The position numbers and the translations under genes are program-made. From assembly GCA_944324445.1 (NCBI GenBank), contig CALUWL010000005.1, positions 1-61,958 of the forward strand: DNA of 61,958 nucleotides. Reading direction: 5' to 3'. This document shows positions 278 through 30,442 of this stretch, piece after piece. This DNA is from Candidatus Gastranaerophilales bacterium. GTDB taxonomy: Bacteria; Cyanobacteriota; Vampirovibrionia; Gastranaerophilales; Gastranaerophilaceae. The notes under the pieces are model-generated. The model was given only the letters and a program-made list of their open reading frames with translations, was not told the DNA's origin and searched no databases. Position 1 is the first letter of the stretch; each line of letters begins with the position of its first letter.

Positions 278-1735
278 ATGCGAGTTAATCCAATTGGGTT
301 AGGTTATGGTATTTTAAAGCCAAACAAAGTTGAAAAAAACAATTCAAGAGTTATGTCAAATCCTGTTGAAGATTCTGATAATTTTGCAAAAGTTTCTCCT
401 GAACAATTGCAAGGGATGAATAATATATCGTTCAAAAGTAATGGTCCTAACCAAGATGAAATAGAAGCGATTTTAAATTCTCCACTGCTAAAAACGGATA
501 GAGACGGTCGAACCTTCTTTCACAGAGCCTCAGCTGAAGATATAGAAGCAAGAAGACAAGAAATAACACCGCAATTATTAAGAATTGCAATGCCTATGCA
601 AGATTATGATAGCAATACTTGTTTGCATTATACAAAAGGATCTGAATTTGTAAATACTATAGCAGATATATTAGGTGATGAAGCACCTGAATTTATACCA
701 AAACTTTATACACTTAAAAATAAAATGAATAGAACACCTATTGATATTAAAGCCTGCAGAAAAAAACAAGACGAATTAGAAGCTTTATTTAAAATCCTAG
801 GCAATAGAACAACGAAATTTGTCAGAGAATATAGAAGTGCAAATGGCTCAACTATTTTCCACTACCCGCTAAAACCTGAAGTTGCTCAAATTATAATTGA
901 TAATATGGGTGATGAAGCACAGCAAGTACTGAATGAATTGCTGCCTATACAAGATGATGATAAGAATACATTATTACATAATATACAACGTCCTAAAACT
1001 TTGGAAATATATGCAGAAACATTAAAAGATAAAGCTCCTGAAGTATTTGCAAAAGCTTGTCTTGCTAAAAATAAAAAAGGCGAAGTCGCTATGAGTGCAT
1101 TACTTGCAAACAATAACCAAGGCAAACTAAAAATTATATTAAAAGCCTTAGGCAATAAAACAGCTGAAGTAGTGAAAAAATACAGAGGTGAATATAATGA
1201 AACAATATTCCACCATAAATTAGAACCTGATATTGCTCAAATTATAGTTGATAATATGGGTGATGAAGCACAGCAAGTACTGAGTGAATTGCTGCCTATA
1301 CAAGATGATGATAAATTTAATAAAAGTACATTCTTGTGCTATGAACAACACCCTGAAACTTTAGAGATATACGCAAAAGCATTAAAAGATAATGCTTCTG
1401 AAGTATTTGCAAAAGCTTGTATTAATGGTGATACTTTTTGGACCATTTATCGTAAGATAGGTGAGTTTTGCAGAGAAAAAGAATTAAATACTATATTTAA
1501 AATCTTGGGTAATAAGACAGCTGAAATAGTAAGAGATTGTAGAACTATTTTCCACCAAAGGCTAACACCTGAACTTGCTCAAATTATAATTGATAATCTT
1601 GGTGATGAAGCACAACAAGTGCTTTATGAATTATTGCCTATGGCAGAAGGTTGGAGATATACATTCTTACACACCAGACAAAACCCTGCAACTTTAAATA
1701 TATATAGAAAAGCATTAAAAAATGAAACTACTTAA
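278..1735 (+). CDS. Ankyrin-like tandem-repeat protein with N-terminal F-x-S tag
   Basis: This 485-residue protein has no catalytic motif that I recognise. From about residue 178 it consists of units of roughly 114-119 residues, starting near 178, 292 and 411; the last is shorter and a diverged unit precedes them. Each unit repeats the pattern GN-T, then TIFH, AQIIIDN-GDEAQQVL, ELLP and LH. The T-x-x-H spacing resembles degenerate ankyrin repeats, so a protein-binding scaffold or effector is plausible. The N-terminus lacks a classical signal peptide but carries NISFKS at residues 49-54, a tag also found on other proteins in this window. The start is supported by a GAGAAAGGG ribosome site about 10 bases upstream. 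The gene stands alone between tRNA-Arg and a hairpin terminator. Function is unknown. Confidence 0.75.
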   Translation: MRVNPIGLGYGILKPNKVEKNNSRVMSNPVEDSDNFAKVSPEQLQGMNNISFKSNGPNQDEIEAILNSPLLKTDRDGRTFFHRASAEDIEARRQEITPQLLRIAMPMQDYDSNTCLHYTKGSEFVNTIADILGDEAPEFIPKLYTLKNKMNRTPIDIKACRKKQDELEALFKILGNRTTKFVREYRSANGSTIFHYPLKPEVAQIIIDNMGDEAQQVLNELLPIQDDDKNTLLHNIQRPKTLEIYAETLKDKAPEVFAKACLAKNKKGEVAMSALLANNNQGKLKIILKALGNKTAEVVKKYRGEYNETIFHHKLEPDIAQIIVDNMGDEAQQVLSELLPIQDDDKFNKSTFLCYEQHPETLEIYAKALKDNASEVFAKACINGDTFWTIYRKIGEFCREKELNTIFKILGNKTAEIVRDCRTIFHQRLTPELAQIIIDNLGDEAQQVLYELLPMAEGWRYTFLHTRQNPATLNIYRKALKNETT

Positions 1736-1994: not shown

Positions 1995-4736
1995 ATGATT
2001 AGACCTATTCAAAACATAAGCTTTGCACACTCAAGCAAATTAAAAACAAAAAAGATACAAAACAATTCTAAAAACTGTCCGGAAAATTTTAAATCAATAT
2101 ATAAACATAATATTTGTTTTACGGGCTTTATCAATAGTTTTGAACCTAATTTTCAAGAAACATTAGATAAAAACTACTTTCAACTTCCGCAAGTGCATTT
2201 TAAAGACGGCTCAACTTATCAATTAAGACCCGATAAATACCAATTTGATTGCGCAAAAGCACTGTATCAAGGCAAAAATCTGGCCTTCATTGCTCCAACC
2301 GGAACAGGAAAAACTGCTGTTGCGCACTATATAATCACAAAAAACCTTAAAAAAGGTAAAAAAACAATATACACTTCACCGCTAAAAGCCCTTGCAAACG
2401 ACAAATTAAGAGAATTTAGAAGAATATACGGAAAAGAAAACGTCGGACTTTTAACCGGAAGCACAAAAATAAACACAAATGCTCCAATTCAAATAATGAC
2501 AACCGAAATATACAACAACCAATCCTCTGAACTTGATAAAAACTCAAGAAACATAGGCACAGTCATTTTTGATGAAGCGCATTATATTTCAGACCCCGAA
2601 AGAGGAAATGCTTGGGAAAACGCGATTTTAAGCACGCCTTTCGATAAAATTCAAACTCTTTATCTTACTGCAACAATAGGAAACGGTGATGATTTTATTA
2701 ATTGGCTGCAATCTCTAAATCCAAACGTAGAAGCAGCTAAAGTAGAAGTAAACCCCGAAGAAAGATTTGTACCTCTAAAATGGCTTATATATGATAAAAA
2801 AGCTAAATCTGAAGATAAAAAATTTCTTCCTATTAAAAACGGTTTTATTAATACCGACTTAATAGATCCAAACAATCTTACAGAAAGACAAAAAAGGGCT
2901 TTTGAGGTAATTTTCAAAGCAGAAAACGACATTCAAGAATACTATGAAATGACCACAGAACAGTATAAAACTCAAGCACAGTCATTTAAAAACACTCTCG
3001 GCGAGTTTGAAAATTTACCCGAAGCGGATTTTAAAGAATTTTTAAAAGAAAATTACCCCAAACTAACAGAAAAACAACAAGAAGAAGTAACACAATTTCT
3101 TACAGATAAAAAAACCGAGCAAATAAATAAAATTCACACAAAACACCTGCCGGATAGCTATCCTGATTTAGTGTCGGATTTAAAAAATAACGATTTACTT
3201 CCCGCATTAATTTTTAAATTATCAAGAAAAAAATGCGAAGAAGTAGTGCAAAGCTTAAAAGACGCTGAAATTGACCTTACAAGCGATAAAGAAAAACAAG
3301 AAATAGAAAAAATTATTGATGAATACAGAAATAAAGGCAAATATCTCGGAACAAACTTCGATAAGAAAATGCTTTTATCAGGTTACGCCTATCACCATGC
3401 CGGAATATTACCTCAATACAAAGAATTAATTGAAGAATTATTTTCAAAAAAACTTCTAAAAACCGTTGTTGCAACTTCAACACTCTCAGCCGGCATAAAC
3501 ATGCCCGCAAGAACAGTTGTTATATCTGATACTTTATTTAAGAAATTTAATCCCCTGACAAAAGAAATTGAATACACAGAACTTTCTGCCAATGATTTTC
3601 ACCAAATGACAGGAAGAGCAGGCCGCAGAGGGGTTGATTCTTTAGGATATGTTGTTCTGTACAATTTAAACACTTCGGATTTTGGATTTAAAGAACGCAA
3701 AAACCAAAATATAGAAAATTTAGAAAACAAAAAAACAAAAAGGCAAATTGAAGAAGATAAAAAACCTGATGAATTAAGTCTGGCATACGATTTAATTGCT
3801 TCACCCGCAGACAAATTAAGAAGTCATTTCAGACCGGACTGGACAATGCTTGCAAAATATTATGAAAACAATACAGATAACGAAAACCTTAAAAATTTAA
3901 TTGCCTCATCATTCAAGGTTTCCTTATCTTTAAATCCTGAAAAAGAAGAACGTTCGCTTTTAAACAAATTTGAAAACTATAAAATTGCCTTATTAAAACA
4001 AGGATTTCTTGAAAAAAATAATAAAAATCAAATATTCTTGACTCCAAAAGGTAAAATTCTTACTCAAAGCCAAGGATTGAACCCGCTTGTGCTTGCAAGC
4101 TTAATATATGATGAAAAATTAAAAGGACTTGAAATAGAACAGCTTTGTCAAATTGCAAGCTATATTGCAGGTTCATCAAGTCAAGAAGAAAGCGATGAAA
4201 TATCAGCTTTAATTGATGAACGTTTTAAAACAACTATTGGTGATGAATTAGATTTCAATTCCAGCAAAAAAGATTTTGACACTACAAGAAAAATTTACAA
4301 AGAAACGGAAGATAAAATCTTAAAAAGCCAGCTTGAAAGCAGGGTTCCTGCTAATTTCATAATGCATTCAAATTCTTTCTGGGGCTATTGCGGCTATCTT
4401 TGGGCTTATTTAAACAATAAAGATAATAATTCAATATCAAACTTTAGGAAAATTACAGATTCAGGATACAGCCCCCTAACGCCCGCTCAACAAATGAATT
4501 ACAGGGAAGCAACCTCGGAATATACAAGATTAAGCTCCGAAGGAAACGTACATAACGTTATTTCTCAAACAGTAAGCATATTAAAACAAATCAGCAAGAT
4601 TTGTGATTTTGCTCTTGAACATGCTGATTTATATCCAAACCAAGATTACTACAACGAATTAAAAGAAAACGCAGAACTTGCACTAATTTTAACCAAACAA
4701 AATCCAATATATGATGAGACAGATTTATGCGAGTAA
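1995..4736 (+). CDS. Ski2-like superfamily 2 DExH helicase
   Basis: A 913-residue ATP-dependent nucleic-acid helicase. Visible motifs are Walker A APTGTGKT (100-107), DEAH (193-196), TAT (225-227), the Ski2-type motif V region TSTLSAGINMPARTVV (494-509) and motif VI QMTGRAGRRG (537-546). A long, charged, Lys/Glu-rich insertion of about 200 residues lies between the two RecA lobes. A further C-terminal region of about 350 residues follows. The first 45 residues hold two F-x-G/S-type tags, NISFAHS and ICFTGF, and are not part of the helicase fold. The stop codon overlaps the start of the next gene by 10 bases, so translation is probably coupled. Ski2-like enzymes unwind RNA or DNA in RNA decay, repair and defence; the substrate here is unknown. 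The start is preceded by TTAGGA and a TATAAT box. Confidence 0.85.
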   Translation: MIRPIQNISFAHSSKLKTKKIQNNSKNCPENFKSIYKHNICFTGFINSFEPNFQETLDKNYFQLPQVHFKDGSTYQLRPDKYQFDCAKALYQGKNLAFIAPTGTGKTAVAHYIITKNLKKGKKTIYTSPLKALANDKLREFRRIYGKENVGLLTGSTKINTNAPIQIMTTEIYNNQSSELDKNSRNIGTVIFDEAHYISDPERGNAWENAILSTPFDKIQTLYLTATIGNGDDFINWLQSLNPNVEAAKVEVNPEERFVPLKWLIYDKKAKSEDKKFLPIKNGFINTDLIDPNNLTERQKRAFEVIFKAENDIQEYYEMTTEQYKTQAQSFKNTLGEFENLPEADFKEFLKENYPKLTEKQQEEVTQFLTDKKTEQINKIHTKHLPDSYPDLVSDLKNNDLLPALIFKLSRKKCEEVVQSLKDAEIDLTSDKEKQEIEKIIDEYRNKGKYLGTNFDKKMLLSGYAYHHAGILPQYKELIEELFSKKLLKTVVATSTLSAGINMPARTVVISDTLFKKFNPLTKEIEYTELSANDFHQMTGRAGRRGVDSLGYVVLYNLNTSDFGFKERKNQNIENLENKKTKRQIEEDKKPDELSLAYDLIASPADKLRSHFRPDWTMLAKYYENNTDNENLKNLIASSFKVSLSLNPEKEERSLLNKFENYKIALLKQGFLEKNNKNQIFLTPKGKILTQSQGLNPLVLASLIYDEKLKGLEIEQLCQIASYIAGSSSQEESDEISALIDERFKTTIGDELDFNSSKKDFDTTRKIYKETEDKILKSQLESRVPANFIMHSNSFWGYCGYLWAYLNNKDNNSISNFRKITDSGYSPLTPAQQMNYREATSEYTRLSSEGNVHNVISQTVSILKQISKICDFALEHADLYPNQDYYNELKENAELALILTKQNPIYDETDLCE

Positions 4737-6985
4737 ATTTTCAAACAATAAAAATAAATACAAATTATACAAAAAAACAAACTAAAACTAATCCAATAAG
4801 TTTTGGCGCTTTTCGCTGCAGTGAAGAAAACTTCGAAATTAAAAAAATTCCATACCTGCACTGTCCTATATGCGGATTATTAATGTTAAAACCGGAAGAA
4901 CAAAAAACATTTGTAAACGATGTCGCATCAAAAAAAGGAGAAGCACTAAAAACAGCACTTGAAAAATACGAAGATGAAAGTGTATTTGTTAAAGACAATT
5001 CAAGCAACAGAAGAAAAACTATATATAGAGAACAAAAACAAGAAGTAGTTAATATCTTAAAACAAATGGCTCTTGAATACCCTGATTTAGCAATAGCAGA
5101 ACTTGTTCGTCTAAAAGCAAAAACGAGTCTTGATGAACTTATTAAAAAGCAATTTGTTGTTTTTGATGAAATTGAAAATTATATAAATACCTCCATCACA
5201 AACGAAAAAGAAAGAGAATTATCGCTTAGAATATTAAACAATTACAAAAAAAATGCAAAAGGAGAATCCTCAACCAAATTTAAAAGAAAAAGTTTTATAG
5301 AAAATATACAAGCCCCCATTTCAGATAAAATTCAAAAAAAAGAAATAAAAGCAATTGCAGAAAAACTCCCAACATCAGATAGTGAAATCAGTGCTTTTTT
5401 TGTTAAATATTCAGATCCCTCGCGATCATCAAAAGAAATTGCAAGTAAATTAGTTGAACAAACATTGCCAAGCACAGAACACCTTATACCTAAATCAAAA
5501 CAAGGACAAAACAAAACAAATAACTATATCTGTGATTGCAGAGATTGCAATTCTACAAGAGGAAATATTTTATTTGATGAATGGATAGAAGGTAAAGAAA
5601 TAACTATACAACAAGGGCTTCAACAATATCTTAAAGACGTTCAAAAAGCTATTGATACAGGTGTTGTTAATTCTAAATATGATGATTATATAGCAGAAAT
5701 TATTGAAACCATTTCAAGAATAAGTAATGGCGAAATAAAACTAACTATGCCGCAAACAACAAACAGTGAAAAACAACAAGCAATTTTTGAAAAAAGAAAA
5801 ATTGAAATAAATAAAATAGGGCGCAAATTAGGAAAAATGATAGAAAAAATCAGAGCGCTTAATAAAGAAATAGCATTTCTTGAAAAACACCCTCAATTTA
5901 ACAGCATTACCCAGCTTACAATAGTCAAAAGACGAATACAGGAACTAAAAAAACAAAATTTAAACCTTGAAAACAGTTTAGAAACAGAACAAAATAAAAA
6001 AGAGGAGTATCTTGCAATTTTAACTGAAATTATGGAGCTTGAAGCAAAACTTAAGGACTGCGACGAAAAAGAAGCGGCTTTAATTAACTTAGAAATTAAA
6101 AATATGAATAAAACTCTTCAATCGAACTTGCTAAATCAATGCGATGAAAGAATAATCCAAATATTAAAAAACATCGAATCTAATGAAGAAGAACTGTCAA
6201 ATCTTTCTCAAAAAGAAGCTTTACTGGAAAAAATACTTAATTCAAATTCACAACCTGCAATTCAAATTGATGAACTAAAAGCATTAATTAAAGAAATAGA
6301 ATCTATACAACGTCAAATTAAAAATTTAGAAAGCTCCTTGCTTGATAAACCAAATCTTGAAAAAAAATTAGCTGACCTTGAAAAAGAAAATAAAAAACTC
6401 CAATATGAAAATGAAACACTCTTAAAAGAAGCAAAAATAAACCCCGAAGATAGAACCGAATACAAAAAACTACTTCACTACAGAGCTCTTTACGAAGTTA
6501 CAATTAAATTAGGGCAATATCCCTCATCCAAAAACAAAGGTAACTCTCTAACAGATATACAAGAAATAGCTCAAATAGCACAAGAAGAAATACTAAAGAA
6601 AATTTTCGAGCTTTCCGAAAAAAATGAAATTAAATATTTTACTAATTCTGACACTATTCAAGCAAACGAAAAACAAATTGGTTTAATAAAATCTAAACTT
6701 GAAAAACTCGAAAAAGCAACGCAATCCTTAAATGAATTAAAAACAAAATATTCAAATTTAGGACAAGGTAAAAGCTTGGAAGAATTAAGAACACTGTATG
6801 AAAAATTACAATCTGAAGAAGCTGCAAGAAAAAAAATAGAAAACATACAAGAAATAAGAACAGAATTAAAGAATCTGGAAGATACACTTACATACAACCT
6901 TGAAATATTAGAAAAATTAAAAAAGGAATACAGATCGCTAAGCGAAGAACAATTCAGAACCCTAACAGGACTAATATACGCATAA
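4727..6985 (+). CDS. Zinc-ribbon HNH nuclease-like protein with long coiled coil (paralogue 1)
   Basis: A 752-residue protein. After an N-terminal tag (PISFGAF, 23-29) comes CPIC (46-49). About 200 residues later is an HNH core with E251-H252, then K-S-K, paired asparagines and C271-x2-C274-N-S-T-R-G. CPIC and the second CxxC probably form one zinc knuckle around the HNH beta-beta-alpha fold, as in McrA-like and Cas9-like HNH domains. The remaining 450 or so residues are almost pure Glu/Lys/Leu-rich coiled coil. It sits between the helicase (10-base overlap) and its own paralogue (1-base gap). A nuclease function is inferred from the motif only. An inactive structural zinc fold on an SMC-like stalk is the main alternative. 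Confidence 0.75.
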   Translation: MRVNFQTIKINTNYTKKQTKTNPISFGAFRCSEENFEIKKIPYLHCPICGLLMLKPEEQKTFVNDVASKKGEALKTALEKYEDESVFVKDNSSNRRKTIYREQKQEVVNILKQMALEYPDLAIAELVRLKAKTSLDELIKKQFVVFDEIENYINTSITNEKERELSLRILNNYKKNAKGESSTKFKRKSFIENIQAPISDKIQKKEIKAIAEKLPTSDSEISAFFVKYSDPSRSSKEIASKLVEQTLPSTEHLIPKSKQGQNKTNNYICDCRDCNSTRGNILFDEWIEGKEITIQQGLQQYLKDVQKAIDTGVVNSKYDDYIAEIIETISRISNGEIKLTMPQTTNSEKQQAIFEKRKIEINKIGRKLGKMIEKIRALNKEIAFLEKHPQFNSITQLTIVKRRIQELKKQNLNLENSLETEQNKKEEYLAILTEIMELEAKLKDCDEKEAALINLEIKNMNKTLQSNLLNQCDERIIQILKNIESNEEELSNLSQKEALLEKILNSNSQPAIQIDELKALIKEIESIQRQIKNLESSLLDKPNLEKKLADLEKENKKLQYENETLLKEAKINPEDRTEYKKLLHYRALYEVTIKLGQYPSSKNKGNSLTDIQEIAQIAQEEILKKIFELSEKNEIKYFTNSDTIQANEKQIGLIKSKLEKLEKATQSLNELKTKYSNLGQGKSLEELRTLYEKLQSEEAARKKIENIQEIRTELKNLEDTLTYNLEILEKLKKEYRSLSEEQFRTLTGLIYA

Positions 6986-6986
6986 A

Positions 6987-9134
6987 ATGAAAATAACAAG
7001 CATAAATAACACCTATAACATCATTAAAAAACCACAAAAAAATTTATTTTTTAAAGGTTTTGATTGCGCAGAACAAGATTTTGAAATAAAAAGACTGTAT
7101 AATATACCTTGCCCCATTTGCTCGGCTACCATGATACAAAGAAATCAAATTGATGCTTTTGTTGCTTTTCTTCAAAACGCAAAAGGTGAAGATATAGTCG
7201 ATATACTAACTAAATACAGAAAATTTTTTCACAAAAACGAAGCACTTGCAGCAGAAATATTAAGTATTGAAGCTCAAAAATACCCAAACAAAAATATTTC
7301 AGAACTGGCGCAAAATTATCTCAATGAAAAACTTCCTATATACAAAAAAGAAAAGCAGGAATTATTTGAAAAAATCAATCAATTAGCACAATATGCTCCA
7401 TCCCAACAACAAGGAAAATTATTATCAATAATTGCAAAACATGAAGAAAGCGCCCAACAAAACAATGATTTTGACAAAGAAGGATTTATAAAAGAAATAA
7501 ATGAACAAGTTCAAGGAACATTCTCAGTAAAAAAGAAAATAATTAAAATAATTCAAAATTTTCCGGATGTAAAAAAAGAAGGACTTGAATTCTTTATTAA
7601 ATATGCAAATAAAACTCAAGCAGAACTAGCTTCCAGATTTGTTACACCTTCGTTTGCCACTTGCGAACATATAAAACCTAAATCAAAAGGCGGAGAAAAT
7701 AATACTGCAAATTATCTTGCAGAATGCGAAGAATGTAATTCTAAAAGAAACGATACACCTCTTTTAGAATGGATTACAAACGTGCCTGCTTTTGTGAATA
7801 ATTTTAAATCATATATACAAACAATTGCTTCAAAAATTCAATCAGGAGAAATTCCTTCCAAATATTCAACATATTTAGATGATATCTCTCAAACAATCTC
7901 AAAAGAAACACAAGGTAAAATAAAAATAAAAACTCCAAAAATTACGCAAGAAAACTTTTTTACAGAAACCGGAACAGAAGAAAGAATAGCGCAATTAGAA
8001 AAAACTTTGCAAGAACAAATTGGTGAACTAAAAAGACTAGAAAAACTAAAAGAAGAACTTGACCAAGATGAACAATATGAATCAATTCTTAGATACAGAA
8101 CGCTTGAATCGAATAAAAGCGCATTAGAACAACGAAAAAAAGAAAAAAAAGAAGAAATAAATAAAAAAAGTTCCTTTTTTGAAAGGTACCGCAAAAAATC
8201 TGACGAACTGGATACAAAAAAAGAAGCTCTAAGGAATATGGATCCAACTTCACATGAGGCTAAAAATCTAGTAATCCAAATCCACAAATTAAAATCTTTC
8301 TTAAACTCAAAAAATCCCAAAACTTTAGAAGAACAAATTGAAGCAGCAAAAGTTGAATTAAGCAAAATTCAACAATCTTTATTAGATGTAAATGAGAAAT
8401 TAGAAACACTTAAAAAGCAAATTGAATTTCCGGAAAAAATAAAAGAACAAATTGCAGAGCTAAAAAGCAAACTGCAAGAAGTTATTTCAACAAAATATGA
8501 ATTAGATAATTTAATTTTATTATCAGAAGAAAATCCGGATATAATTCAAAAAATAAAAGAAAAAGAAGCTGAAATTCAAAAACTTCTTCAAGAAAATAGT
8601 TCATTGGAAATATCTCTGCATGGGGAAAATGATATTGACACATATTTAGCTATGACAGATGTAATTAAAAAAACTGATGAATATTTAAATAACGACAAAA
8701 ACCAAAATACACCGAAAAATACAACCGAAATAACTATATACGAACTTGCAAAACAAAAAGCAAATGAAATCATTGCCGGACTAGCCAAAATCAGCTCGGC
8801 AGTAAAAGTTCAGATAAATTTACAAAAAATTTCAGAACTTACTTCGCAATTGCACAACCTTTACATTGATTTTAACAATATACAAACCAATTTCTTAAAA
8901 GCTAAAACTCTTAAAGATAAACTTGACAAAATGCCTTCTGAAGCCGATCTAAAAGGAGAAATAAAAATCCTATCTGATGAATTAGAAATGGCAAAGAAAA
9001 GATTTGATTCCGTTGCGCTGGAAATAAAAATTAAAAATCTCAAAGAAGCAATCAAACACAAAGAAAGAGCTCTTTCTCAAATAAAAGCTGAAACATCAGA
9101 AGATGCCATAAGGCAAATTTTATCAACTATTTAA
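6987..9134 (+). CDS. Zinc-ribbon HNH nuclease-like protein with long coiled coil (paralogue 2)
   Basis: A 715-residue paralogue of the preceding gene with the same plan: tag LFFKGF (20-25), CPIC (42-45), HNH core with E227-H228, K-S-K-G-G, N-x-x-x-N, C247-x2-C250-N-S-K-R, then about 440 residues of coiled coil. The segment after the tag (D/E-x-DFEIKR, then CPIC) closely matches its neighbour's E-x-NFEIKK, so the two arose by tandem duplication. The coiled coils have diverged much more. It is the last gene of the helicase operon, with only one base separating it from the previous stop. Two different subunits may form a heteromer; this is inferred. No transmembrane segment is visible. Confidence 0.75.
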   Translation: MKITSINNTYNIIKKPQKNLFFKGFDCAEQDFEIKRLYNIPCPICSATMIQRNQIDAFVAFLQNAKGEDIVDILTKYRKFFHKNEALAAEILSIEAQKYPNKNISELAQNYLNEKLPIYKKEKQELFEKINQLAQYAPSQQQGKLLSIIAKHEESAQQNNDFDKEGFIKEINEQVQGTFSVKKKIIKIIQNFPDVKKEGLEFFIKYANKTQAELASRFVTPSFATCEHIKPKSKGGENNTANYLAECEECNSKRNDTPLLEWITNVPAFVNNFKSYIQTIASKIQSGEIPSKYSTYLDDISQTISKETQGKIKIKTPKITQENFFTETGTEERIAQLEKTLQEQIGELKRLEKLKEELDQDEQYESILRYRTLESNKSALEQRKKEKKEEINKKSSFFERYRKKSDELDTKKEALRNMDPTSHEAKNLVIQIHKLKSFLNSKNPKTLEEQIEAAKVELSKIQQSLLDVNEKLETLKKQIEFPEKIKEQIAELKSKLQEVISTKYELDNLILLSEENPDIIQKIKEKEAEIQKLLQENSSLEISLHGENDIDTYLAMTDVIKKTDEYLNNDKNQNTPKNTTEITIYELAKQKANEIIAGLAKISSAVKVQINLQKISELTSQLHNLYIDFNNIQTNFLKAKTLKDKLDKMPSEADLKGEIKILSDELEMAKKRFDSVALEIKIKNLKEAIKHKERALSQIKAETSEDAIRQILSTI

Positions 9135-9242: not shown

Positions 9243-9416
9243 ATGTTTAATTCAGTAAGCCTTTCAAATTTTTCAAGCTCAAAACCTGAAACAGCAGGGA
9301 CTTTAGCAAATAAACCCGCAAGCGCACCTTCAATTTTTTCAACCGAAACAGCAGGATCAATCGCAAGCGCACCAAGCACCACATCTTCATCAAGCAGTTT
9401 TTGCGCAATGGCATAA
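9243..9416 (+). CDS. Small Ser/Ala-rich protein, 57 residues
   Basis: A short ORF with a very strong ribosome site, AAGGAG, seven bases before the ATG. The product starts MFNSVSLSNF and is made of Ser, Ala, Thr and Pro. It contains an internal repeat, ETAG followed by ASAPS, twice (around residues 16-29 and 35-45), and ends FCAMA. No signal peptide or membrane segment is seen. It begins about 110 bases after the HNH operon and 26 bases before a second small ORF. The family is not recognised. The ribosome site and clean reading frame argue that it is expressed. Confidence 0.55.
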   Translation: MFNSVSLSNFSSSKPETAGTLANKPASAPSIFSTETAGSIASAPSTTSSSSSFCAMA

Positions 9417-9442: not shown

Positions 9443-9583
9443 ATGACAGAGTCAAAATTAACAAATCTTCTATTGGGAACAATGGTGTTAATTTCCTGCA
9501 CAATGTTTATTTGGACGCTAAGTTATATACAATCATCAAATACTATACAACCCCCAATAGCAATATCAGCATTTAACGCATAA
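9443..9583 (+). CDS. Small single-span membrane protein, 46 residues
   Basis: Starts at an ATG preceded by GAGGA nine bases upstream. Residues about 9-29 are hydrophobic (LLLGTMVLISC continuing to IWTL) and form one membrane span or an uncleaved signal anchor. A short polar tail ends AFNA. A Cys sits inside the span, without a good lipobox. It follows the Ser/Ala-rich small ORF by 26 bases and is followed by a hairpin and a terminator, so both small genes probably form one short transcript. Function unknown. Confidence 0.5.
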   Translation: MTESKLTNLLLGTMVLISCTMFIWTLSYIQSSNTIQPPIAISAFNA

Positions 9584-9618: not shown

Positions 9619-9650
9619 AAAGGCTACTAAACAGCGGAAAGAGGACAACA

Positions 9651-9683
9651 AAAAAGACCTAAATAAAAATTTAGGTCTTTTTT
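9651..9683. terminator. Bidirectional intrinsic terminator
   Basis: The arms AAAAAGACCTAAAT and ATTTAGGTCTTTTT form a 14-base perfect stem around a short A-rich loop, with a T-run on either strand. It serves the plus-strand small ORFs and the convergent O-methyltransferase gene, whose stop lies a few bases downstream. Confidence 0.85.
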
Positions 9684-9686
9684 GTA

Positions 9687-28312: not shown

Positions 28313-30442
28313 ATGAACATAGATAAAATCTCATCTGTAAATGCAGTTCAATTTCAATCCAAAAAAAAGAAAGTTTCTAACCCTATCACAGATACCAGAA
28401 GTCAAGTTGACACAGTATCATTTAGCAACAAACAAAGAAAAAACAAACTTCTTGCATACATAACATCAGGCTTAATTGCTCTTACATCAATATTGAGCCC
28501 TGCCAAAACAAGCGCTGCAACTTTTGATAAAAGCATTAAAGACTATTCTAATTTAAATGCTGCTGCAATAACAGAAATTGCAGACGATAACAACTACCAA
28601 TTAGCTCAAACATTGGATGAACCTTCTATAACATTTGACCTAACAGGCAACTGGGAACCTGTTACTTATAAACCAATTACATCATTAGCATATTTTACAA
28701 AAGATATTGAAACAGGAAATGATTTTGCTAAAATTGATGACATATTAACTAATCTATATCCAAATTTACCTAATGATGATTATCATAAAAATTTAGGAGC
28801 TTTAGCTCTAATTAAAGCTAACCCTTGGATGCTTGAAAAAGTTACAGATGGACAAGTAGATTTCACTCAAGGTGATGTATCAAACGTTGACCCTGAATTG
28901 ATTAGAGCAACAGACTACACAACAGAAGGTGAAAAAACTATGATTCTTGTACCGGAATTTACCGCAGTACAAGAAACAATTGATAACGCCAAATCCACAA
29001 TGATGTATAGCACAGTTTTAAGACCAAATACAAACATATTAACATTAAGCGAACAAGAACTTGCGGCACTTCCAAGCGGCGAAGCAAAAATTAAAATGGT
29101 CAAAGATAAACTTGCTCAAATATACAACATAGACACAATGGAATCATACGCAGGAGATAGCATCTGGCATGCAATCAGCTTAAAAAAAGAAAATGAAGAT
29201 ATCTTCAAATATTCAAGCGAAGCAAACAATGATGAAGCGCTCCTATCATATATTAAATACTATGGTGATTTGAATTTAACTTGTCCTAATGTACCAATAA
29301 GTATAGTTGCTTCCGATTCTAAAGATTTCGTCTTCTTTAATGCTGATAATTTCTTAAAATCAGAAAGAGAAGAAGCTCCTGTAATAAGCTATATTTCTTC
29401 AGATAGAACAGTTGCAAATCTGGCAGATTTAAACGGAGCATTAACTACTCCTCTTGATATTTTGGATTTGTATGGATTAACAGATGATATAAGCTTAAAA
29501 GAAGCATATATGCAAAATCCCGCAAAAAATGCAGGTCTTCTAACTTCGGCTTATAGACAAATTATAGATAACGATAACCAGCTGCTTTCAATTTATGGTA
29601 ACAGAATAATAACAGAATCAGATTTATATACTCCTATTGGTTTAAGTTTATCTAACCCTGAAAACGCAAAAATAAATCTGCAGCCTTTGGCTTATGCTCA
29701 TGCTGAATATATTCCTGATTACAATTTAATATGTAATACACCAACAGCAGATCCAAATAATACTCCAACTGCTACTCCAACTCCAACAGCAACTCCTAGC
29801 GCTACTCCAAGCCCAAGTGCTGAACCAACAGCCACCCCAACTCCTAGCGCTACTCCAACAGCTACTCCAAAACCGACGGCTACTCCAAAACCAACAGCTA
29901 CACCAAAGCCAACAGCTACACCAAAACCAACAGCTACTCCAAAACCGACGGCTACTCCAAAACCGACGGCTACTCCAAAGCCAACAGCTACACCAACGGC
30001 TACTCCAAAACCGACGGCTACTCCAAAGCCAACTCCAACTCCAACTCTACCTCCTGTAAATCCTACAGATGAACCGATAGTAACCGCAGAGCCAACTAAA
30101 ACTCCTCCGGCTCCAACTAAAGAACCAACACCGGTTCCAACTAAGGAACCTACTCCGGCTCCAACTAAGGAACCTACTCCGGCTCCAACTAAAGAACCAA
30201 CACCGGTTCCAACTAAGGAACCTACTCCGGCTCCAACTCAAAAGCCAACTCCGGCTCCAACTAAAGAGCCAACTCCGGTTCCAACTAAAGAGCCAACTCC
30301 GGTTCCAACTCAAGAGCCAACATCAGATCCAACTCAAGAACCGACACCGGCTCCAACATACTGTCCTCCAATCACAACAGGCGATCCTGGTGATAGCGGC
30401 GACAATAATACCGGAGATGATGGTGCAGAATTCGGCGACTAA
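28313..30442 (+). CDS. Exported protein with long Pro/Thr repeat tail
   Basis: 709 residues. The N-terminus carries the shared tag (VQFQSK at 12-17, then VSFSNK). A hydrophobic segment follows at about 47-67 ([16 protein letters not shown], then AKTSAA), so it looks like a signal peptide or anchor with an unusually long N-region. Residues 70-470 form an unassigned globular domain. From about 480 to 682 the sequence is Pro/Thr repeats: first ATPKPT units, then PTKEPTPAP or PTKEPTPVP units, then a short acidic Gly/Asp end. The tail is a probable extended, possibly glycosylated stalk. The ribosome site TAGGAG is good. The repeats are nearly identical in DNA and may change in number. Family not recognised. 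Confidence 0.7.
29752..30360 (+). repeat. Pro/Thr-coding tandem repeat tract
   Basis: About 600 bases within the preceding gene consist of 18-base units coding ATPKPT (around 29865-30030) and then 24- to 30-base units coding PTKEPTPxP (around 30110-30350). Several units are identical in DNA (for example the block AAGGAACCTACTCCGGC repeated in tandem), which favours slippage or recombination. Not a CRISPR: the repeats are contiguous, coding and have no spacers. Confidence 0.9.

What the first reader, a model, noticed from the sequence alone, without database searches (positions are those of the whole stretch)
1995..9134. Operon of a Ski2-like helicase and two paralogous HNH/coiled-coil proteins
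Three genes overlap or abut (10-base overlap, 1-base gap). The helicase motifs are intact. Both partners combine a split CxxC...CxxC zinc knuckle, an HNH core and about 450 residues of coiled coil. A helicase with an SMC-like, nuclease-tipped pair is an attractive design for a nucleic-acid processing or defence system. I do not recognise this arrangement as a named system. The same operon carries the N-terminal tag, so its products may instead act at a special location.
Basis: partly seen in the sequence, partly recalled or inferred. Interest (0 to 1): 0.72.

Follow-up and report, generated by a model that had tools for sequence, protein, structure and literature searches.

The report
Tagged RNA-type helicase with HNH nucleases
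In one family of non-photosynthetic gut cyanobacteria, a second copy of an RNA-exosome-type helicase is encoded head-to-tail with one or two nucleases that look active; the pair is conserved across at least 18 genomes and is not a named system, but what it does in the cell is not known.

Summary
Window 1995-9134 carries a 913-aa helicase, then two paralogous HNH/coiled-coil proteins (752 and 715 aa), with a 10-base overlap and a 1-base gap. The host is a Candidatus Gastranaerophilales genome. The helicase is an SKI2/MTR4-type DExH enzyme. It is a lineage-specific paralogue of an untagged, housekeeping copy that the same genome also has. The nuclease heads are Cas9-like HNH domains. Their catalytic His and second Asn are kept in 85 of 85 relatives. 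Full-length relatives occur only in this family, in 138 of 146 genomes. Helicase and HNH gene abut in 18 genomes from at least four genera; 27 other tagged helicases stand alone. It resembles Hachiman and AbpAB in plan, but the nuclease is unrelated and the helicase branch differs. Defence is possible but not shown: no PADLOC family fits the set, most loci lie among housekeeping genes, and no phage or plasmid copy was found. All products carry a disordered N-terminal tag with a near-invariant Phe, shared with unrelated proteins, which points to targeted or exported action.

The parts
1995..4736 (+). SKI2/MTR4-type DExH helicase, 913 aa, tagged paralogue
   Evidence: DEAD 3e-25, Helicase_C 4e-9, DSHCT above cut-off; PDB SKI2 3e-63; model aligns to Mtr4/Ski2 Z 26-30 over residues 50-912
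1995..2138 (+). disordered N-terminal tag region of the helicase (ISFAH, ICFTG)
   Evidence: pLDDT <50 for residues 1-48; absent from the housekeeping paralogue
2292..2315 (+). Walker A APTGTGKT (residues 100-107)
   Evidence: alignment A3, all but one position invariant
2571..2582 (+). DEAH box (residues 193-196)
2880..3149 (+). helical insertion before RecA2 (about residues 296-385), absent from the housekeeping paralogue
   Evidence: pairwise alignment, helices in the model
3603..3632 (+). motif VI QMTGRAGRRG (residues 537-546)
4727..6985 (+). HNH-B: tag + HNH head + coil, 752 aa; the clade found in all g1 linked operons
4862..4873 (+). first CxxC (CPIC) of the split zinc knuckle, HNH-B
5477..5566 (+). 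HNH core EHLIPKSKQGQNKTNNYICDCRDCNSTRGN of HNH-B
5759..6982 (+). coiled-coil region of HNH-B
   Evidence: by alignment to HNH-C, modelled
6987..9134 (+). HNH-C: tag + HNH head + coil, 715 aa; second paralogue, present in 6 of 18 linked operons
6987..7061 (+). N-terminal tag of HNH-C (NLFFKGF; F22 kept in 82 of 84 heads)
7110..7121 (+). first CxxC (CPIC) of HNH-C
7665..7754 (+). HNH core EHIKPKSKGGENNTANYLAECEECNSKRND of HNH-C
   Evidence: E/D227 and H228 85/85, N242 84/85, N251 85/85; fold match to Cas9 HNH, Z 9.8 and 9.2
7965..9131 (+). long helices / coiled coil of HNH-C
   Evidence: model residues 327-714
9648..9685 (.). 17-pair inverted repeat with T run, likely bidirectional terminator ending the unit

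Best explanation
The three genes are one co-expressed helicase-nuclease module (gene order and overlaps shown; complex inferred). The helicase, an SKI2/MTR4-type translocase that is a lineage-specific paralogue of the cell's own housekeeping enzyme (homology and fold shown), binds and unwinds structured or damaged nucleic acid (inferred). The Cas9-like HNH heads of the partners (active-site conservation and fold shown) then cut the exposed strand (inferred). The long coils probably pair or oligomerise the nucleases and hold them on the helicase (inferred). The disordered N-terminal tag carried by all three products (shown) sends the machine to a place where other tagged proteins also go (inferred), so it works apart from the untagged housekeeping Ski2-like helicase of the same cell. 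Its likely job is to destroy or survey nucleic acid at that site, with foreign DNA or RNA as one candidate target.
For: Overlapping or abutting helicase-HNH pairs in 18 genomes of at least four genera, in two separate helicase clades. Helicase: PDB SKI2 3e-63 and Mtr4/Ski2 Z 26-30, motifs invariant. Nuclease: catalytic residues kept in 84-85 of 85 heads, Cas9 HNH fold match spanning model residues 27-311. Purifying selection on all three genes, dN/dS 0.11-0.34. Tag disordered and above shuffles: 15 of 28 helicases against 3.0 expected, 36 of 68 heads against 6.0. Untagged paralogue in the same genome; tagged and untagged split 100/100.
Against: 27 tagged helicases have no HNH neighbour, and most heads have no helicase neighbour, so each can act without being linked. 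A physical complex, nuclease activity and the substrate were not tested. HNH enzymes usually cut DNA while SKI2/MTR4 enzymes usually act on RNA, so the substrate is unclear. The coil is lost in G145 and absent in G051 and G015.
Confidence: 0.55

Rival explanations
1. It is an anti-phage or anti-plasmid defence system working like Hachiman/AbpAB: the helicase senses damaged or foreign nucleic acid and unleashes the HNH nucleases.
For: Same plan as HamAB, where a Ski2-like helicase activates a nuclease (PMC12278908). The operon diverges faster (48-63% identity) than flanking genes at the same locus (75-97%). Variable composition and several chromosomal locations. Type I R-M genes nearby in G021, DuOB and DUF488 in G051. 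Weak HamB profile match of the helicase, 2e-27.
Against: No PADLOC family fits the nucleases. The helicase is far closer to SKI2 (3e-63) than HamB (4e-12). Most loci sit among housekeeping genes and several stay in place (dnaJ/grpE locus in G000, G057, G127, G107, L162, L178). Heads are near-universal in the family. No full-length viral or plasmid copies. dN/dS well below 1.
Confidence: 0.3
2. The products are exported effectors. The tag is an N-terminal secretion signal, and helicase and nuclease act on nucleic acid of a neighbouring cell or host.
For: Tag is N-terminal, disordered and shared by ankyrin-like and other fast-evolving proteins. All 39 genomes sampled from the order have a flagellar-type export gate gene (FliQ family), most of them in two strong copies. 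Many members are reported to lack a complete flagellar gene set (PMC4040986).
Against: Tagged proteins include an AAA+/M41 protease and a protein with a hydrophobic anchor-like stretch, which are unlikely effectors. An ATP-driven 913-aa helicase is an odd effector. No VirB4-type T4SS. No direct evidence of export.
Confidence: 0.15
3. It is an ordinary nucleic-acid maintenance module (RNA decay, R-loop or DNA repair) specific to this lineage, with the tag as a nucleoid or membrane localiser.
For: SKI2/MTR4 fold, vertical inheritance at a fixed locus, strong purifying selection, chromosomal and near-universal heads.
Against: Absent from most relatives in linked form; variable composition; fast divergence.
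Confidence: 0.35
4. The adjacency is incidental: a lineage-specific HNH family and a tagged helicase that happen to lie together and share only the tag.
For: 27 tagged helicases lack an HNH neighbour; most heads are alone or in tandem pairs.
Against: 18 genomes with overlapping or abutting ORFs, in two separate helicase clades and several chromosomal neighbourhoods; HNH is the partner each time.
Confidence: 0.15

Closest known systems
SKI2/MTR4 (DOB1, HelY-type) RNA helicases
   Same: Sequence (SKI2 3e-63), DSHCT domain, whole-length fold (Z 26-30).
   Different: N-terminal tag and a helical insertion before RecA2; matches best to arch-truncated Mtr4; operon with HNH nucleases; no exosome partner in the operon.
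Hachiman HamAB and AbpAB
   Same: Ski2-like helicase encoded with a nuclease (PMC12278908).
   Different: HamA is a DUF1837 nuclease with a D-E(X)K motif; here the nuclease is HNH. The helicase is on the SKI2/MTR4 side and HamB is far (4e-12). Tag and coils are not part of Hachiman.
Cas9/IscB-type HNH domains
   Same: Core with conserved His and Asn residues, split CxxC/CxxC and the following W; fold match to AceCas9 and AnaCas9 HNH, Z 9.8 and 9.2; IscB profile hit 1e-5.
   Different: No RuvC, bridge helix or guide-RNA parts; about 170 residues are inserted between the first CxxC and the HNH core; a coil follows.
BREX type 2 BrxHI and BREX-associated HNH effectors
   Same: Ski2-like helicase; HNH genes reported as auxiliary effectors (PMC12839542).
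   Different: No PglZ, BrxC or methylase in the operon; the BrxHI profile hit is weak, 4e-11.
SMC/Rad50/Wadjet/Lamassu
   Same: Long antiparallel coil (Z 8-12 to coil segments).
   Different: No ATPase head; matches at that Z are usual for long helices.

Membership tests
SKI2/MTR4-type SF2 helicases | two RecA domains with SF2 motifs I-VI | tested here: met
SKI2/MTR4-type SF2 helicases | C-terminal DSHCT domain and whole-length fold | tested here: met
   DSHCT 2.7e-5, over the Pfam cut-off; Z 26-30 over residues 50-912
SKI2/MTR4-type SF2 helicases | arch domain | tested here: inconclusive
   best Foldseek match is arch-truncated Mtr4; bacterial members vary
SKI2/MTR4-type SF2 helicases | 3'-5' RNA unwinding | not testable with these tools
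   -
HNH (His-Me finger) nucleases | catalytic His and metal-binding residues | tested here: met
   85/85 His, 85/85 E/D, 84-85/85 Asn
HNH (His-Me finger) nucleases | HNH fold | tested here: met
   Cas9 HNH Z 9.8, rmsd 3.4 over 111 residues
HNH (His-Me finger) nucleases | nuclease activity | not testable with these tools
   -
Hachiman | HamA (DUF1837) as partner nuclease | tested here: not met
   operon partners are HNH proteins, no HamA match at E<=1; genome-wide PF08878 search empty, but its control did not ring
Hachiman | HamB-type helicase | tested here: inconclusive
   HamB profile 2e-27, but SKI2 3e-63 against HamB 4e-12 in PDB
Hachiman | phage protection | not testable with these tools
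   -
BREX | PglZ/BrxC/PglX genes in the locus | tested here: not met
   the three operon proteins match none and the neighbouring ORFs read as housekeeping genes; neighbours were not all profile-searched
SMC-like (Wadjet, Lamassu, Rad50) | ABC ATPase head with Walker A and signature | tested here: not met
   no Pfam SMC/ABC family matched; only coil-type matches to SMC-related profiles, E 0.003 or worse
IscB/Cas9 | RuvC plus HNH and guide-RNA parts | tested here: not met
   only the HNH portion matches

The most novel reading that the evidence does not exclude
Gastranaerophilaceae have a tag-addressed set of proteins: second copies of core enzymes (SKI2-type helicase, AAA+/M41 protease) and a lineage-specific nuclease family, each carrying a disordered N-terminal [IV]-S-F-[KG]-[GA] signal. 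The signal sends them to a discrete site or out of the cell, perhaps through a flagellar-type export gate. The operon is then the nucleic-acid-processing arm of an undescribed compartment or secretome.
Probability: 0.25. Interest if true: 0.8.

Novelty: new variant of a known kind. Interest (0 to 1): 0.52.

Why it matters
It adds a helicase-nuclease pairing (SKI2/MTR4-type helicase plus Cas9-like HNH with coil) that the family libraries searched here do not name. It is confined to a common but mostly uncultured gut lineage of non-photosynthetic cyanobacteria. If the tag is a targeting signal, the untagged paralogue in the same genome gives a built-in control, so both the location and the function become directly testable.

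Tried and rejected
SMC-like pair: rejected, no ATPase head. Hachiman member: rejected on the partner nuclease. RNA-guided (IscB/Cas9) nuclease: rejected, only the HNH part matches. Phage or plasmid origin: no full-length relative in viral contigs, plasmids or phages; the one phage hit is a 108-aa generic HNH. The 46-aa membrane peptide downstream as a fourth component: rejected, it occurs away from the operon in G021, G145 and g26. Positive selection as a sign of an arms race: dN/dS 0.11-0.34, and dS is near saturation. Secretion by T4SS: no VirB4. Promoter scan: 45 sites found against 43 expected, uninformative. HamA genome search had no ringing control. Foldseek on the whole HNH-C model gave no match at E<=0.001 because the coil dominates; the second look by VIA-align was used instead. 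A literature search for a named Ski2-like plus HNH defence system returned only a BREX survey.

Full report
WHAT IS THERE. The window contains three same-strand ORFs at 1995-4736, 4727-6985 and 6987-9134. The first two overlap by 10 bases and the second and third are one base apart. Downstream, a 17-pair inverted repeat with T runs at 9648-9685 separates them from a convergent housekeeping block that includes dnaJ and grpE. Close full-length relatives come from MAGs titled Candidatus Gastranaerophilales, from animal gut and rumen sources where the title tells. The window is a whole contig of a 1.8 Mb genome.

HELICASE. Pfam finds DEAD, Helicase_C and a DSHCT domain over its cut-off. In the PDB the nearest sequences are SKI2 (3e-63) and MTR4/DOB1 (5e-55); HamB of Hachiman is far behind at 4e-12. 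The AlphaFold model (pLDDT 81.9, pTM 0.78) aligns with Mtr4, FRH and Ski2 at Z 26-30 over about 630 residues and with Hel308 at Z 21-24; the top Foldseek match is an arch-truncated Mtr4. Motifs I-VI are intact. The same genome has a second, 776-aa Ski2-like helicase that starts 28 residues before Walker A and has no tag. Matches of that kind occur in nearly every genome sampled from the phylum (193 of 194 at E<=1e-25, tagged and untagged together). A tree separates 30 tagged helicases from 13 housekeeping ones with 100/100 support, and places the g1, g3 and g39 helicases, those next to HNH coiled-coil genes, in one clade of ten (100/100). Some long branches make the deeper order unsure. The tagged forms differ by an N-terminal extension of about 60-125 residues and, in the window protein, a helical insertion before RecA2.

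NUCLEASES. The two partners are 25% identical paralogues. Their heads match HNH_5 and HNH weakly. Across 85 different heads the catalytic His is present in 85, the preceding Glu/Asp in 85, the two Asn in 84 and 85, and the Arg/Lys in 85. The AlphaFold model of HNH-C (pLDDT 89.6, pTM 0.46) has a confident head (residues 27-311), a flexible joint (320-328) and long helices to the end. VIA-align matches the head to the HNH domains of AceCas9 and AnaCas9 (Z 9.8 and 9.2, about 110 residues); the coil matches many long coils, which at Z 8-12 is not specific. The first CxxC and the HNH core are separated by about 170 residues, mostly helices. The family is found in 138 of 146 family genomes, usually as 310-520-aa proteins without a long coil, and in none of the sampled genomes outside the family at E<=1e-6 (79 of 194 phylum genomes, all in f1). 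Outside, only the roughly 50-residue core is recognisable. No full-length relative was found in viral contigs, plasmids or phages.

LINKAGE. I examined 45 tagged-helicase loci. In 18 genomes an HNH gene follows at once on the same strand: G000, G057, G127, G107, G021, G145, G002, G042, G039, G069, G051, G015, and L162, L163, L164, L169, L177, L178. In 27 it does not. The g16 pair (G051, G015) lies outside the g1/g3/g39 helicase clade (only G051 was in the tree, on a long branch) and has a coil-less HNH, so the association recurs. Six operons carry both HNH-B and HNH-C (G000, G057, G127, L162, L163, L164); single-nuclease operons of the window's genus carry the B type. G145 lost the coil (385 aa). 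In g3 a tagged AAA+/M41 (FtsH-like) protease gene overlaps the start of the helicase gene. The two-nuclease coiled form is therefore one variant of a helicase-HNH module.

EVOLUTION. At the same locus, operon proteins are 48-63% identical between close genomes while neighbouring genes are 75-97%. All three genes are under purifying selection (dN/dS 0.11-0.34, against 0.04-0.17 for neighbours), heads change less than coils, and dS is near saturation. This shows functional proteins that evolve fast, not a proven arms race.

TAG. All three products have a disordered start (modelled for the helicase and HNH-C) with a motif close to [IV]-S-F-[KGT]-[GAS]; the Phe is kept in 82 of 84 heads. The motif exceeds shuffles in tagged helicases (15 of 28 against 3.0) and heads (36 of 68 against 6.0). 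About ten of 403 proteins sampled from this genome look truly tagged (my reading of the list), and unrelated tagged proteins include ankyrin-like proteins and the AAA+/M41 protease. What the tag does is unknown. As a lead only: 39 of 39 genomes of the order have a FliQ-family export-gate gene, most of them in two strong copies; in the three genomes examined (G000, G145, G301) one copy lies in a FliPQR-FlhB-FlhA cluster and the other in a separate FliO/P/Q/R-like cluster (gene names by inspection, not by profile search, apart from FliQ). No VirB4 was found. Many Gastranaerophilales are reported to have incomplete flagellar gene sets (PMC4040986).

MECHANISM. The best-supported reading is a helicase that opens or threads nucleic acid for HNH nucleases held together by coils, at a tag-defined place. 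Shown: gene order, conserved linkage, helicase class and motifs, nuclease active-site conservation, tag. Inferred: complex, cutting, substrate, location, biological role. Defence by a Hachiman-like plan is a real rival. Hachiman is a Ski2-like helicase that activates a nuclease (PMC12278908), and two linked lineages have R-M, DuOB or DUF488 neighbours. But the nuclease is unrelated, the helicase is nearer SKI2, most loci are ordinary, and the nuclease family is nearly universal in its host family. In the paper library, one paper holds the terms Ski2-like, HNH, helicase and defense system together; it concerns BREX and the passages read do not describe this pairing.

VERDICT. A real, conserved, lineage-restricted helicase-nuclease module of unknown role, a new variant of a known kind. 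The tag is the part most likely to lead to something larger.

Noticed in passing
window 278-1735; 28313-30442; L059:11177-14116; L060:2286-5258; L054:12148-13179: Unrelated proteins share the N-terminal [IV]xF[KG][GAS] tag: ankyrin-like repeat proteins, a divergent AAA+/M41 protease, a Pro/Thr-repeat protein with a hydrophobic anchor. Roughly 3% of sampled proteins look tagged.
   Followed up: partly
L272:7124-12186 (G000:C21) and L271:82-3751 (G000:C81); L273, L275: Two flagellar-type export-gate gene sets: one FliPQR-FlhB-FlhA, one separate FliO/P/Q/R-like set with a 400-aa FliM/SpoA-like(?) gene and a long FliQ (163-181 aa). Most of 39 genomes of the order have two strong FliQ-family copies.
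   Followed up: partly
L059 and L060 (g3): Tagged AAA+/M41 protease gene overlaps the start of the helicase gene, giving a protease-helicase-HNH operon.
   Followed up: partly
window 9243-9416 and 9443-9583: Two short downstream ORFs with RBS-like sequences: a Ser-rich 57-aa protein with ETAG(T/S)IA-type repeats, and a 46-aa single-TM protein. Both conserved in several relatives; the TM gene also occurs away from the operon.
   Followed up: partly
L072-L075, L079-L084: HNH heads without coil often occur as tandem divergent pairs or triplets in other genera (g25, g7, g35, g22, g6); in some (L083) one copy has lost the second CxxC.
   Followed up: no
L055:997-3803 (G021); L089:4473-6220 (G051): Linked operons near type I R-M genes (hsdM, hsdS) and next to a DuOB protein with two DUF488 genes.
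   Followed up: partly
L056:4787-7623 (G021:C17): Two extra HNH genes in tandem beside an N6-methylase/HSDR_N protein (R-M-like).
   Followed up: no
window 278-1735 against L054:12148-13179: The upstream tagged ankyrin-like gene is only 26% identical to its positional counterpart, and no counterpart was matched in G057, so tagged genes turn over fast at this locus.
   Followed up: no
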